DNA from: a bacterium
GTDB lineage: Bacteria; Hydrothermota; UBA3073; JACQXS01
Direction: 5' to 3'
Length of the DNA stretch: 38,218 nucleotides
Assembly (NCBI GenBank): GCA_030592575.1
Contig: JAUVIV010000013.1
Location: forward strand, 1-38,218
The position numbers were made by a program, and so were the translations under genes. Numbering within the stretch: position 1 is the stretch's first letter; each line of letters starts with the position of its first letter. Below are positions 1-4,975 of this stretch, piece after piece. The notes beneath the pieces are model-generated. The model was not told the origin of the DNA, ran no database searches, and saw only the letters and a list, made by a program, of their open reading frames with translations.

Positions 1-3000
1 CAAAGATTTTCCGTAATTAGCCCGCATCCATTTATTGGAAGTAATATAACAGAGCACCCCTTTTTCAGTCAGAATATTTATACCTTTTTCGTAGAAAAGA
101 GCGTAAATGTCACCTGTTCGTTCAAATGTTTTATAGTTCTCCTTTTTATAAATATCTGCAAATTTAAGTTTTCCGTTTATTGCTTTTTGCAGTTGAATAT
201 ACGGAGGATTCCCAAGAACAATATCAAACCCACCTTTTTCAGAAAACACCTCTGCAAAATAGACATTCCACAGAAAGAAATCTTTAGCTTTTCTTCCTTC
301 GGTGTAGGCACTTAAGTCTTTTTCAATTTGTTCAATATCAAAGCCAAGTTTCTTAGCCAGTTTTTGTTTCTCTTCGGCAATTGCTTTTTCTCGTTGTTTT
401 TCGTTTGGCAATACGGAATATTTTTCTTCAATTCTTTTTAACTGTGGGAAGTGTTGATTGATTTTATCTTCAACAATTTTAAAGATAATTTTTTCAATCT
501 CATTACGCAGTTGGTCTTTCTTGTCTTTGTCAGATTCGTTTTGATATTCGTTCTTTACTTCTTCAAATTCTTTAATAAGTAGTTTGTAGGGTTTATCTGT
601 ATCAAACAAAAGATTTTCAGTCGGTTTTTCGGTTGCATTAAAATCAATTCCGGCATAAGTTGAAATCAAACTGTTCCCCTGCATAAGTTTAAAATCAAGA
701 TTTGGTAAAGCTTCAATTTCATAATTATTTTCCGGTTTATTAAAATCAATTTTTTCATCAACAAGTAAAGAGATGAAAAAGCGTAGTTTGGCAATTTCAA
801 CTGCAATTTGCTGTATATCTACACCGTAAATACATTTTTCAATTAAATAGAGTTTACGTCCGTAGTCTGCATTTTTTTCTTTAAACTTTTTTTCAATACT
901 TTCAATTGCAACTCTCCGTGATTTTGGATCTGGAATATTTTTTGTCCCATCCAATTGAACCTGTTGCCAAAATTTATTTTCGGGGTCAAGTTTACCGAGA
1001 ATAAAAACAAGTTTATTGAGGATAGCCATCGGGAAAGCACCGGAGCCAACAGCCGGGTCAACCACGCGTAAATTGTTTATTAACTCTATTATTTGTTTTG
1101 TAGTTTTTTCATCAAATGGATTTTCAGAAGTATTATCGAACAAAGTATCCAAAGCATCTTGCTTTGGAGTTTGTTTTTGTTCTTGAAATTGAAAGCTGGA
1201 AGCTTTCGCTACTATGCCTGCTTTTTCCGGATTTTGTCTTATATAATTTCTGATAGATTTAAATGCTTTCTCGTTTCTTACAATATGATCGTACGATTCG
1301 TGTATCCAAAATTGACCGCTTGAATTGATATTTTTATTTATTTCATTAGCCGTAAACGATTTCCACGAATGCGTAATATCGCTTAGTTGATAATTATCAA
1401 ATGGTTTTACGAGTACATGAACATGATTTGGCATTACTACCCATTCATCAAGTTCATACCTTTTTTCTTTAAAATATTTAATTGCATTTGCAACTATTTC
1501 TGCATTTGCTTTATCTTTTAAAACGCATTTGCCATACCCTGCATCCATCCAGTTCTCAACCCGTTCCGAAAACAAATAGTAATATTCTTTAAGTTCTTCT
1601 GTTGTATATTCATTCCTGTCTTTTTTCTTATGGTTTTTCAACCATATTTTGCGTTCTTTTTTTAACTGCTCAACTTTTTGTTTTGGAATTGAATCAGCCA
1701 ACCTAAAAGTTATAAAGTACCATGAATTATCTTGTGTCCAATGTGGTAATTTACCTTGCTTTATCACTATCTCATCGTTTGGATTTAGAAACCCAATGGT
1801 ATCTATGGTATCCAAAGCATCCTGCTTTGGTTCATTCGGAAGCAAGATGTTTCCGATACCTTGTCTAAAATATTGTTTCAGACTTTCGATAGTCATATAA
1901 TTAACAATCTCTCGCGGTGTGTAAAAACTTCCTGTGGCTTTTCGTGCAGTTGTGGCTGTTTCGGGGTTGTAGCTTGCCAGTAAATTTTCAAAAATAGAAC
2001 CGAGTAGTTCAGGGTCAAGGGCAACTTCAATATCGTCCGGTTCGTTTTCATCGATAGTAAAGTTGTAACTGTTGAGTAAATTTATTAAACCTTCTACTTC
2101 ATAAGTTTTGTTCGCTTTCCCAAAAAAACTACTAATGTCAGCTTTTTGAATTTCGGAAAAGAAAAGAGAATTAGGAACTTTTGGTTGATTTTCTTTGGTA
2201 GCTGTAAACCCATCAATATATTTTCGTTCATTTTTATCTTTGGTTTTATAATCCAGGCACTCAAACAAACCGCCATTTAAGAAAGGTATTTTGCTGAATA
2301 ATTCCTTAAGAGATTCTTCATCATTAAATAGATTATGATAGCGAAATACATTATGGTTACCGAAATCGGGGTTGTAGCCTTTGTTTCCTCTGTTTTCGCT
2401 GCGAAATTTTCTTTCTTTCTGTTTGGTATTTAATGTGGCAAAAAAGAGATTTTGCAAAATAGCTTTATAATATGTTGATTCTTCCGCTGAAAAGTCTTTT
2501 AATATTTTGCTGATATTTTCTTCAACAAAAAGATCGGCAGGAATAAGATTACGTACTTTCATAAACCAGATAAACATAAGCCTGGTGATAAGCCTAATAA
2601 TTGCAACTTCGCGACCGTTTGTTTCTTGTTCGGCATCTTTGGGAAATTCCACATTTTTAATAGCCCAAAAATACCAGCGCTGTAGCTTTTCGTAGAACTG
2701 TTTTGTAATCGGTTCAACGCTAAAAGCCTCCTGAATGCTATCTAAATCATTAAAATCGGCTTTTGATATTTGTTGTATAAAAGTTTTATTCGTGAATTCG
2801 TGGCTTACAAAATAAGTATATCTTTTAAAATCAGTAAAATCTCTTTTTGCACCAAGGAAGTTAACCCGGATTAAACTAAAACGGAAATTGCCGTTATCAT
2901 CATAAAAAATAAAAAATGCAGCGTCTTTGTTTTCTTCTTTTAGGATTTTCTTTGCAATTTCAAACTGTCTTTTTTTCCCGGTTCGGTTAGTAAGTTGGGT

Positions 3001-3219
3001 TAAAGTTTTTGCCGTAAAAACAAGAATATCGTCTGTATTGGTTAAATCGGCTTCACCTATCTTTATAATGTTTTCGTAGTGAGCGGTTATACTTTCATTG
3101 TCTTCAAACAAATACTCGTAATTTTCTTCGTCAGGCTTGAACTTGCTTATTTTTTGTCTAAAAAACTGTTTCAGTATATCAACTGAAAACCCCGTAATTA
3201 AGTTGTTTAAAGTATCCAT
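1..3219 (-). CDS. Type IIG (Eco57I-like) restriction-modification methylase with inserted RAYT domain, partial
   Basis: The reading frame is open from an ATG at 3219 to the window edge, about 1073 codons with no stop; the C-terminus is missing. The N-terminal ~400 residues resemble the N-terminal part of Eco57I-like fused restriction-modification proteins. The methylase core shows FYTPREIVNYM (near residue 435), motif I VVDPAVGSGAFPM (near 720) and motif IV NPPY (near 1002), as in gamma-class N6-adenine methylases. Sequence after NPPY (ITSNKWMRANYGKSL) is typical of the family. Between FYTPREIVNYM and motif I lies about 230 residues foreign to the family: a RAYT/Y1-transposase domain, annotated separately. 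I checked codon by codon that the frame is continuous through the insert. The gene starts 18 nt after the DUF1801 gene and may be cotranscribed with it. Whether the chimera is active cannot be told from sequence. Confidence 0.85.
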   Translation of the reverse strand, partial: MDTLNNLITGFSVDILKQFFRQKISKFKPDEENYEYLFEDNESITAHYENIIKIGEADLTNTDDILVFTAKTLTQLTNRTGKKRQFEIAKKILKEENKDAAFFIFYDDNGNFRFSLIRVNFLGAKRDFTDFKRYTYFVSHEFTNKTFIQQISKADFNDLDSIQEAFSVEPITKQFYEKLQRWYFWAIKNVEFPKDAEQETNGREVAIIRLITRLMFIWFMKVRNLIPADLFVEENISKILKDFSAEESTYYKAILQNLFFATLNTKQKERKFRSENRGNKGYNPDFGNHNVFRYHNLFNDEESLKELFSKIPFLNGGLFECLDYKTKDKNERKYIDGFTATKENQPKVPNSLFFSEIQKADISSFFGKANKTYEVEGLINLLNSYNFTIDENEPDDIEVALDPELLGSIFENLLASYNPETATTARKATGSFYTPREIVNYMTIESLKQYFRQGIGNILLPNEPKQDALDTIDTIGFLNPNDEIVIKQGKLPHWTQDNSWYFITFRLADSIPKQKVEQLKKERKIWLKNHKKKDRNEYTTEELKEYYYLFSERVENWMDAGYGKCVLKDKANAEIVANAIKYFKEKRYELDEWVVMPNHVHVLVKPFDNYQLSDITHSWKSFTANEINKNINSSGQFWIHESYDHIVRNEKAFKSIRNYIRQNPEKAGIVAKASSFQFQEQKQTPKQDALDTLFDNTSENPFDEKTTKQIIELINNLRVVDPAVGSGAFPMAILNKLVFILGKLDPENKFWQQVQLDGTKNIPDPKSRRVAIESIEKKFKEKNADYGRKLYLIEKCIYGVDIQQIAVEIAKLRFFISLLVDEKIDFNKPENNYEIEALPNLDFKLMQGNSLISTYAGIDFNATEKPTENLLFDTDKPYKLLIKEFEEVKNEYQNESDKDKKDQLRNEIEKIIFKIVEDKINQHFPQLKRIEEKYSVLPNEKQREKAIAEEKQKLAKKLGFDIEQIEKDLSAYTEGRKAKDFFLWNVYFAEVFSEKGGFDIVLGNPPYIQLQKAINGKLKFADIYKKENYKTFERTGDIYALFYEKGINILTEKGVLCYITSNKWMRANYGKSL
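1145..1212. repeat. REP/inverted-REP pair at one end of the RAYT
   Basis: It holds two hairpins. CCAAAGCA-TCT-TGCTTTGG at 1149-1167 has a perfect 8-bp stem and is preceded by GTAT. GAAAGCT-GGA-AGCTTTC at 1191-1207 has a 7-bp stem and is followed by GCTAC, so read on the minus strand it begins GTAGC. A GTAG-type tetranucleotide next to a palindrome is the classic REP layout. Confidence 0.75.
1808..1859. repeat. REP/inverted-REP pair at the other end of the RAYT
   Basis: GTATC at 1808 and GATAC at 1855-1859 are complementary and enclose two hairpins. These are CCAAAGCA-TCC-TGCTTTGG at 1812-1830 and CGGAAGCA-AGA-TGTTTCCG at 1837-1855, the latter with one G-T pair. The first 23 nt repeat the segment at 1145-1167 with one mismatch, in direct orientation. 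Confidence 0.75.
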
Positions 3220-3237
3220 TATAATAATTTATTTCTT

Positions 3238-3591
3238 CTATAACTTATACGATTGTTTAACATAATATTCAAGCTTTTTATTTTTAATATCTTCTTGTTG
3301 AGCAAGTTTTAAGTGTCTTCTATATTTCCCGATTCCTTCAAGGAAATTGTCAGGGTCTTGCATCTCCACACCTCTATCAAACTCTACCGAGATATGATTT
3401 TTTCGGACAAAGATTCCGCAGAACAGTCTCTTGCCAATTACAAAAACCAAACCGCCATATTTTATTTCTTCTTTTGCGGTTAGAGCTATATCCAAAATTA
3501 ATTTTCTCAAAGAGATTACAATTTTTCCTTTGTCCTCATCAACAAATAGAATGTCTTGTATGAATTTATCGATTTTAGGATTTGCTTTCAT
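3238..3591 (-). CDS. DUF1801 (YdhG-like) protein
   Basis: This 117-residue protein has the DUF1801 signature: an N-terminal helix with KIDKFIQDI, a central IKYGGLVFVIGKRLFCGIFVRKNHISVEF-type core (from about residue 43), and a C-terminal LEGIGKYRRHLKL segment. Length and layout fit the complete family. The fold is known from structural genomics, but no biochemical role is firmly established. An AAGGAG lies about 12 nt before the ATG. The gene ends 18 nt before the start of the type IIG methylase gene on the same strand, so the two could share a transcript; that link may be positional only. Confidence 0.8.
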   Translation of the reverse strand: MKANPKIDKFIQDILFVDEDKGKIVISLRKLILDIALTAKEEIKYGGLVFVIGKRLFCGIFVRKNHISVEFDRGVEMQDPDNFLEGIGKYRRHLKLAQQEDIKNKKLEYYVKQSYKL

Positions 3592-3643: not shown

Positions 3644-4975
3644 CTACAATTTATGTATAGCAGAATGTGTTATGTCAAGAAATGCTTCTTTCAAGCATTC
3701 CGAAAGAGTAGGATGTGGATATATAAGCTCGCCGAGTTCTTGAGCCATGATTTCATTTTTTACTCCCATAACGCAAATAGGAATAAGATCTGAGGCATGT
3801 GGGCCTATGATTTGAACTCCTTTAACTTTACAGTTTTTATCCGTAATTACTTTCGCAAAACCTTTAGATTCCCCAATACATAAAGCTTTGCCAACTCCTT
3901 GAAATCTATATTCTCCAACTTTTGCATCAGGAACTTCCGATTCGAATTTTCCGACACAAGCAATTTCAGGATTAGAAAAAATGCAGTTAGGAATTGAATT
4001 GTAATCCATAACAGATTTTAATCCGCTTGCATTTTCAGTTGCGACAATTCCTTCACTTGACGATTTATGAGCAAGTAATGGAGTACCGGTTATATCTCCA
4101 GCTGCATAAATCCCATTTATATTCGTTCTCATGCTACTATCAACAACAATTCTTCCTGCTTCAATGTTTAATCCTATATTTTTAACCGTATCTAAATTTG
4201 GAACTCTACCACAAGCAATAAGAACTTTCTCAGCTTCAATTTCTTCACCCGTTGAAAGCAGGGATATATTACGACTTGTTTCTATTTTCTCTACTTTACT
4301 TCCTTCTATTATTTTTATTCCTTGAGCCTCAAGCTCTTTTTTAATTACGTTAACAATTTTTTCGTCTTTTATTTCCGGCAATATACCTGGTAACATTTCT
4401 ACTAAAGTAACCTTAGAACCTAACCCGGAAAATATAGTTGCAAATTCAACCCCTATTACTCCGGCACCTATAATTAGAATGCTTTTAGGAAGAGATTCAA
4501 GAGATAATATCTCGTCGGAAGTCAATATATATTCTCTGTCAACTTCAAACGGGAGAAACGAAGATGAGCCTGTGCAAATTATTATAGATTTTGCCTTGAT
4601 TTCCTTCTCTCCGACAGTTAAGCATCCTGGCTCTTTTATATTTGCTTCTCCATTTATAATTTCTACTCCATTTTGTTTAAGCAAAAATCTAATTCCGGAA
4701 GTCAATTTTCTCACAATCATTTGTTTTCTTCTCATTATTTCTTGAAAAGATATTTCCGGAGATGTAACTTTTATCCCAAAATCTTTTGCATTTTTTACAT
4801 TTTGAAAAGCTTCAACGGATGCAAGCAGTGCTTTTGTCGGGATACAGCCCCGATTAAGACAAACTCCTCCAATCTCGTCACGTTCTACGATGCAGACTTT
4901 TTTCCCAAGTTGTGCTCCACGAATTCCAGCTACATAGCCGGCAGAGCCACTTCCTATTATGCAAATATCATACAT
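3644..4975 (-). CDS. lpdA: Dihydrolipoamide dehydrogenase (E3)
   Basis: This FAD-dependent pyridine nucleotide-disulfide oxidoreductase reoxidises dihydrolipoyl groups of 2-oxoacid dehydrogenase or glycine cleavage complexes with NAD+. From the ATG at 4975 it is 443 residues. Visible motifs are the FAD-binding GSGSAG at the N-terminus, the redox disulfide GGVCLNRGCIPTK, the NAD-binding GAGVIGVEFA, GIYAAGDITG, and the C-terminal YPHPTLSE with the catalytic His and Glu. A TTG at 5005 would add ten residues, but it lies inside the terminator of the upstream ferredoxin gene, so I chose the ATG. No Shine-Dalgarno is visible. A TATTTT lies 7 nt before the ATG, but its -35 is poor. No E1, E2, lipoate or glycine-cleavage gene is nearby, so its partner complex is unknown. 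Confidence 0.9.
   Translation of the reverse strand: MYDICIIGSGSAGYVAGIRGAQLGKKVCIVERDEIGGVCLNRGCIPTKALLASVEAFQNVKNAKDFGIKVTSPEISFQEIMRRKQMIVRKLTSGIRFLLKQNGVEIINGEANIKEPGCLTVGEKEIKAKSIIICTGSSSFLPFEVDREYILTSDEILSLESLPKSILIIGAGVIGVEFATIFSGLGSKVTLVEMLPGILPEIKDEKIVNVIKKELEAQGIKIIEGSKVEKIETSRNISLLSTGEEIEAEKVLIACGRVPNLDTVKNIGLNIEAGRIVVDSSMRTNINGIYAAGDITGTPLLAHKSSSEGIVATENASGLKSVMDYNSIPNCIFSNPEIACVGKFESEVPDAKVGEYRFQGVGKALCIGESKGFAKVITDKNCKVKGVQIIGPHASDLIPICVMGVKNEIMAQELGELIYPHPTLSECLKEAFLDITHSAIHKL

What the first reader, a model, noticed from the sequence alone, without database searches (positions are those of the whole stretch)
1145..1859. A complete RAYT domain inserted in frame in a type IIG restriction methylase, with its REP hairpins translated as part of the protein
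The sequence shows one open frame from 3219 to the window edge that passes through a full HUH/Y1 REP transposase domain (MPNHVHVLV, ESYDHIVR) placed before methylase motif I. The two flanking palindromes are 663 nt apart (221 codons), in direct orientation, and both read PKQDALDT. RAYTs are normally stand-alone genes. Here the transposase has no start signal of its own and would exist only as a methylase fusion, like an intein without splicing. Selection for an in-frame insert suggests the host protein is kept alive, or that the chimera has a role.
Basis: partly seen in the sequence, partly recalled or inferred. Interest (0 to 1): 0.85.

Follow-up and report, generated by a model that had tools for sequence, protein, structure and literature searches.

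The report
REP transposase nested in defence genes
A complete REP-linked transposase, with the DNA hairpins it normally acts on, sits in frame inside a bacterial restriction enzyme, and about 30 further cases show that such nested transposases occur again and again in anti-phage defence genes and, in our sample, in no other identifiable gene.

Summary
The minus-strand ORF 3219..1 (open at the contig edge) is a type IIG (Eco57I-like) methylase with a full RAYT domain (HUH H599/H601, Tyr659) between methylase motifs X and I, bordered by translated REP hairpins 663 nt apart. Four homologues (67-81% identity) have the empty site. The case is not isolated. In samples of roughly 1,000 genomes I found 31 more intact in-frame RAYT insertions. 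All lie in restriction/defence proteins (type IIG, HsdR, HmaB/DUF1156, PglX-like, DrmD-like), at about 12 distinct positions; none lies in another identifiable gene. Embedded copies have mostly lost their start codons (6/26 have one, against 27/28 stand-alone; p=1.5e-8) but keep catalytic residues and REPs. In one HsdR set they are under purifying selection (dN/dS 0.12-0.19). Closely related RAYTs occur in unrelated hosts, so the lineage has moved between genes. Its REPs are confined to the host gene in G000 and G260. Best reading: a protein-embedded, start-less REPtron adapted to live inside horizontally exchanged defence genes. A functional domain role and simple tolerance remain rivals. The papers I searched do not describe this; one survey discarded 'unexpectedly long' fusions. 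No protein evidence exists.

The parts
1..3219 (-). Type IIG (Eco57I-like) restriction-modification methylase ORF with embedded RAYT, 1,073 codons, ATG at 3219, cut by the contig edge
1864..3219 (-). Host part 1: N-terminal region up to motif X (GSFYTPREIVNYM...ESLKQYF), residues 1-452
   Evidence: 75-81% identity to L003-L006
1..1146 (-). Host part 2: from the linker (LFDNTSENPFDE) through motif I (DPAVGSGAF) and motif IV (NPPY) to the contig edge
   Evidence: 67-80% identity to L003-L006
1147..1863 (-). Insert relative to empty-site homologues (about 239 codons where they have a non-conserved linker of about 20-26)
1177..1785 (-). RAYT (TnpA-REP, HUH/Y1 transposase) domain, residues 479-681; predicted as an ordered domain (block pLDDT mostly about 70-89) between disordered linkers
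   Evidence: best sequence and fold match 4er8 TnpA-REP
1417..1425 (-). HUH motif (H599-V-H601 of MPNHVHVLV)
1243..1245 (-). Catalytic tyrosine Y659 (NYIRQNPEKAG), aligned with the YIYINPVKHG tyrosine of E. coli TnpA-REP
1808..1830 (.). REP hairpin on the N-terminal side, translated PKQDALDT
1836..1856 (.). Degenerate inverted REP (TCGGAAGCAAGATGTTTCCGA) paired with the previous one (BIME-like), translated within GIGNILLPN
1145..1167 (.). REP hairpin on the C-terminal side, direct copy, translated PKQDALDT
1765..1767 (-). Only possible start codon next to the RAYT N-terminus (GTG, no Shine-Dalgarno match)

Best explanation
This is a REPtron (REP-RAYT-REP unit) that has become resident inside the reading frame of a defence gene. 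SHOWN BY SEQUENCE: the RAYT and its hairpins are in frame in a variable linker of the methylase; relatives have the empty site; most embedded RAYTs have no start codon of their own; catalytic residues and REPs are kept; related RAYTs occur in unrelated defence genes and at several positions; in two genomes tested all cognate REP copies lie in the host gene. INFERRED: the RAYT is made only as part of the host protein and folds as a separate domain on two flexible REP-coded linkers, so the host enzyme keeps working. From there it nicks and re-joins its REP hairpins in single-stranded DNA. Rarely it moves the whole unit into another gene, and only in-frame, loop-tolerated insertions survive. Recombination between the direct REP copies can delete it precisely and in frame, leaving a REP scar. 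It persists because defence genes are exchanged horizontally and, in restriction systems, are costly to lose, which gives a transposase without its own cell-to-cell mobility a vehicle.
For: Empty sites in L003-L006. A HmaB empty site: L121 lacks the RAYT of L137 in well-matching flanks. 32 intact embedded RAYTs, all in restriction/defence proteins. Same RAYT clade in IIG, HmaB and DrmD-like hosts (SH-aLRT 96), and the window's clade includes an HsdR-embedded copy (97). RAYT 64% identical where the host is 39-44% (window vs L097), and 64% in the unrelated hosts L102/L133. Start codon loss, p=1.5e-8. REP hairpins, many with GTA-type tags, at most of the examined insert borders. REPs confined to the gene in G000 (2/2) and G260 (7/7). 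REP without RAYT at site 1 of L103. RAYT dN/dS 0.12-0.19 in HsdR copies. Predicted separate fold with disordered REP linkers.
Against: No movement has been observed; mobility is inferred from trees. The confinement to defence genes is not itself explained by a generic selfish element, and the vehicle argument is inference. Conserved RAYT catalytic residues and purifying selection would also fit a useful domain. No protein-level evidence that the chimeras are made or active.
Confidence: 0.58

Rival explanations
1. Functional fusion: the RAYT domain was recruited repeatedly by restriction/defence enzymes to add single-stranded hairpin binding or nicking, for example against phage or plasmid DNA.
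For: Exclusive occurrence in defence proteins and convergent capture by several RAYT lineages; HUH and Tyr conserved; dN/dS well below 1.
Against: About 12 unrelated positions including helicase linkers and a specificity region; close relatives without it; REPs, which a protein domain would not need, are kept; RAYTs differ at the same site in otherwise similar hosts (L120/L121, L122/L139).
Confidence: 0.22
2. Plain tolerance: REPtrons insert anywhere, and large, loop-rich, dispensable restriction genes are simply where in-frame insertions survive.
For: Insertions are in linkers; REPs alone are known inside many kinds of genes (PMC3733652).
Against: None of the 32 lies in another large protein; 78 stand-alone RAYT loci show no out-of-frame remnant in these host families; no clear embedded case among about 150 listed IS200 matches; start-codon loss and the clustering of embedded RAYTs on the tree indicate adaptation.
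Confidence: 0.15
3. Reversible switch: REP x REP recombination promoted by the RAYT adds or removes the insert or REP repeats and so modulates the enzyme (phase-variation-like).
For: Direct REPs a multiple of 3 apart; in-frame REP array length differs between the related HsdR genes L117 and L118; REP-only sites.
Against: No mixed population or within-strain variation was examined.
Confidence: 0.05

Closest known systems
REPtron / RAYT (TnpA-REP) with flanking REPs (E. coli TnpA-REP, PDB 4er8)
   Same: HUH/Y1 domain with conserved HxH and Tyr, best sequence and fold match 4er8; bordered by palindromes with GTA-type tags.
   Different: Known RAYTs are stand-alone genes, described as single-copy, vertically inherited and incapable of self-mobilisation (PMC3116915, PMC8049555). 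Here they lie inside other proteins, mostly lack start codons, and occur in unrelated genes.
Intragenic REPs and Rickettsia palindromic elements (RPE)
   Same: Palindromes translated in frame inside host proteins, in part in DNA-processing genes (PMC3733652).
   Different: Those are short elements without a transposase; here the whole transposase is inside the protein and hosts are restriction/defence genes.
Inteins / homing elements
   Same: An enzyme domain nested in frame in a host protein, with empty-site relatives and recurrent use of one position (from general knowledge).
   Different: No splicing domain; REP-coded linkers stay in the protein; several positions per host; different enzyme chemistry.
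Type IIG / Eco57I-like, HsdR, HmaB, PglX, DrmD defence proteins
   Same: Host parts score against these models.
   Different: Insertion of a 150-200 aa transposase domain plus REP-coded arrays.

Membership tests
RAYT / TnpA-REP | HUH/Y1 nuclease fold with one catalytic Tyr, closer to TnpA-REP than to IS200 TnpA | tested here: met
   NF047646 4.9e-21 vs IS200 1.9e-7; 4er8 best by sequence and by fold; H599, H601, Y659 conserved. The score of 75 is just under the NCBIfam cut-off of 80.
RAYT / TnpA-REP | Gene flanked by tagged REP palindromes (REPtron) | tested here: met
   Hairpins on both sides with GTAT-type tags. The canonical GTAG is a variant here; other copies have GTAG or GTAA.
RAYT / TnpA-REP | Stand-alone gene, extragenic REPs in many copies per genome | tested here: not met
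   In-frame inside a methylase; REPs only in this gene.
Type IIG restriction-modification enzyme | Gamma-type N6 methylase motifs X, I and IV in a single chain with an N-terminal region | tested here: met
   TPREIV, DPAVGSGAF, NPPY; PADLOC IIG 7e-64.
Type IIG restriction-modification enzyme | Complete C-terminal specificity domain and restriction activity | not testable with these tools
   ORF cut by the contig edge; no biochemistry.
Intein | Splicing domain with conserved N- and C-terminal splice residues | tested here: not met
   Pfam scan shows only Y1_Tnp in the insert.
IS200/IS605 insertion sequence | Mobile multi-copy IS with TnpA of the IS200 type | tested here: not met
   IS200 model far below its cut-off, 31 vs 55 bits; this unit occurs once in the genome.

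The most novel reading that the evidence does not exclude
A class of protein-embedded mobile elements: RAYTs that have given up their own gene structure, live as translated domains inside anti-phage defence enzymes, move between unrelated defence genes, and spread with them.
Probability: 0.5. Interest if true: 0.93.

Novelty: new variant of a known kind. Interest (0 to 1): 0.86.

Why it matters
RAYTs are the textbook domesticated, immobile bacterial transposases, and what keeps them in genomes is an open question. Finding their relatives inside defence enzymes of several families suggests that some lineages do move, and gives a concrete vehicle for their persistence. It also shows that restriction/defence genes can carry whole catalytic domains of selfish origin. 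If the RAYT contributes to defence instead, it is a new activity added to restriction enzymes. The catalytic-mutant experiment tells these two apart.

Tried and rejected
Native methylase domain: rejected, close homologues lack it. Assembly chimera: rejected by recurrence on megabase contigs. Ordinary IS200 insertion: rejected by model scores; of about 150 listed IS200 matches in the control, the two long frames were a run of N and a terminal read-through with no embedding in a known gene. Chance hairpins: rejected. RAYT relatives in plasmids, phages or viral contigs: the window RAYT's DNA found no plasmid match, its protein found only three plasmid matches, annotated as transposase or hypothetical, no phage match and no viral relative. 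One clade for the site-1 IIG RAYTs: not rejected (AU p=0.56), so a single old insertion at site 1 followed by losses remains possible there; independent insertion is argued from other sites and hosts. L138 (ORF with an in-frame stop, no recognisable host) was not counted.

Full report
WHAT IS THERE. The minus-strand ORF from 3219 to the contig edge is open for 1,073 codons. Its host part is a type IIG, Eco57I-like methylase (Pfam Eco57I 7e-33; PADLOC IIG 7e-64). Between motif X (GSFYTPREIVNYM) and motif I (DPAVGSGAF) lies a complete RAYT: Y1_Tnp 1.4e-9, REP_Tyr_transpos 4.9e-21, best solved relative E. coli TnpA-REP 4er8 by profile (2.2e-11) and as the top PDB fold match of the whole model (3.5e-4). 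HUH (H599, H601) and the catalytic Tyr (Y659) are present. REP hairpins at 1145-1167 and 1808-1830 are direct, 663 nt apart and translated PKQDALDT; a degenerate inverted REP at 1836-1856 makes the N-terminal border BIME-like. Codon-shuffled copies of the gene give 0.05 such hairpins on average against 2 observed. The two exact REPs (up to 1 mismatch) are the only copies in the 2.49 Mb genome.

EMPTY SITES. Four methylases from MAGs labelled Deferribacteres, Cloacimonadales, BMS3Abin04 and Desulfobacterales (67-81% identical per matched segment) and two more distant ones run through this position without the RAYT, with a short, unconserved linker of about 20-26 residues in the four close ones. 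So the RAYT is an insertion into a variable linker. A predicted structure gives the insert as an ordered domain with low-confidence stretches (pLDDT<50) at the REP-coded parts, 457-492 and 671-685; the whole model is only moderate (mean pLDDT 69.6, pTM 0.57).

IT RECURS, AND ONLY IN DEFENCE GENES. I searched samples of several groups with this RAYT or a RAYT profile, never with the host protein (together roughly 1,000 genomes), and opened the loci of hits in long frames. 32 intact in-frame insertions were found, the window included. Hosts: type IIG between motifs X and I (window, L097, L098, L099, L100=L101, L116), between motif I and YGVD (L102, L103, L136, L187), before NPPY (L096, L142), in the C-terminal/specificity part (L105); HmaB/DUF1156 methylases at about four positions (L095, L104, L120, L121, L134, L135, L137, L140, L141, L191); a PglX-like methylase (L122, L139); type I HsdR at two positions (L117-L119, L185); a DrmD-like helicase (L133, L186). 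Representative hosts were checked with Pfam and PADLOC; the rest were assigned by eye from close similarity to these. Some of these ORFs (window, L095, L103, L119, L120, L133, L141, L187) run off a contig end, so 'intact' means open through the insert and both visible host parts. L190 is a truncated methylase with a RAYT. I saw no long-frame RAYT in any other recognisable gene. Frames of 300-450 aa were mostly not opened, and hit lists are samples.

CONTROLS. None of 78 loci with stand-alone RAYTs shows pieces of these host genes on both sides, so out-of-frame insertions in them were not seen. Among about 150 listed IS200 transposase matches in the phylum of G103, the two long frames were a run of N and a terminal read-through. 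A start codon lies within 24 codons before the conserved LPHW in 6 of 26 embedded and 27 of 28 stand-alone RAYTs (Fisher p=1.5e-8; related copies are counted separately, so the p-value is optimistic). This supports translation only as a fusion.

MOVEMENT AND SELECTION. On the RAYT trees the embedded copies are strongly clustered but not one clade (7-8 changes, at least 4 forced, 0 of 500 shuffles as low). Within clades the host changes: IIG, HmaB and DrmD-like hosts share one (support 96), and the window's clade (97) includes an HsdR-embedded copy. The window and L097 RAYTs are 64% identical while their hosts are 39-44%; L102 and L133 share a 64% identical RAYT in unrelated hosts. At one HmaB position the RAYTs of L120 and L121 are more diverged at synonymous sites (pS 0.81) than their hosts (0.48-0.54), consistent with replacement or repeated insertion there. 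In the HsdR trio, RAYT dN/dS is 0.12-0.19 and host 0.10-0.11 (longer host segments). L100 and L101 are 99.97% identical over 7.3 kb in two genomes and diverge at the gene's 3' end, which suggests recent exchange.

REPS LIVE IN THE GENE. In G260 all seven REP copies (up to 3 mismatches) flank the RAYT in the methylase gene. In G462, six of ten copies are in hsdR, one is in an ORF beside the hsdM-like gene, and three appear intergenic. L103 carries five tagged REPs in one methylase, one of them alone at site 1, as expected of a scar. L117 and L118 differ by in-frame REP array length.

HOW IT MOST LIKELY WORKS. See Best explanation: an in-frame REPtron expressed through its host, tolerated because it sits in linkers, moving rarely by REP nicking and strand transfer, lost by REP x REP recombination, and carried between cells by exchange of the defence gene. 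Sequence shows the anatomy, start loss, conservation, host range and host switching; activity, transposition and the vehicle argument are inferred.

COMPARISON WITH WHAT IS KNOWN. RAYTs are described as single-copy, vertically inherited, domesticated and incapable of self-mobilisation (PMC3116915, PMC8049555). Intragenic REPs without transposase are known, several in DNA synthesis and repair genes (PMC3733652). [quoted passage not shown] My searches of the open-access library found no description of RAYTs inside restriction or defence proteins; most subscription papers were not searchable. I rate it a new variant of a known kind (REPtron), with a new location, expression mode and host range.

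Noticed in passing
L188 (G1020:C426) 3757-4503: A RAYT closely related to the HsdR-embedded ones, with its own start and stop, stands as a gene between hsdS-like and hsdR-like genes of a type I restriction operon: a possible intermediate between stand-alone and embedded.
   Followed up: partly
L173 (G576:C155) 730 and 2219; L174 3798: The same REP as in the hsdR genes also lies inside the neighbouring hsdM-like gene (G576) and near the start of the next ORF (G576, G462).
   Followed up: partly
L143 (G156:C1:2325963-2326194): Three copies of the REP of G260's methylase (1 mismatch) at exact 105-nt spacing in an apparently intergenic region of another genome, whose own embedded RAYT has different REPs.
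   Followed up: no
L190 3253-4305: N-terminal fragment of what looks like a DNA methylase followed in frame by a RAYT and then an unrelated gene: looks like a decayed embedded case.
   Followed up: partly
L185 8406-9623: A second, probably decayed RAYT frame next to an hsdS-like gene in the same type I restriction locus that has a RAYT embedded in hsdR.
   Followed up: no
window 3238-3591 (-): Small ORF just upstream of the methylase that looks like a DUF1801-type protein (by eye only).
   Followed up: no
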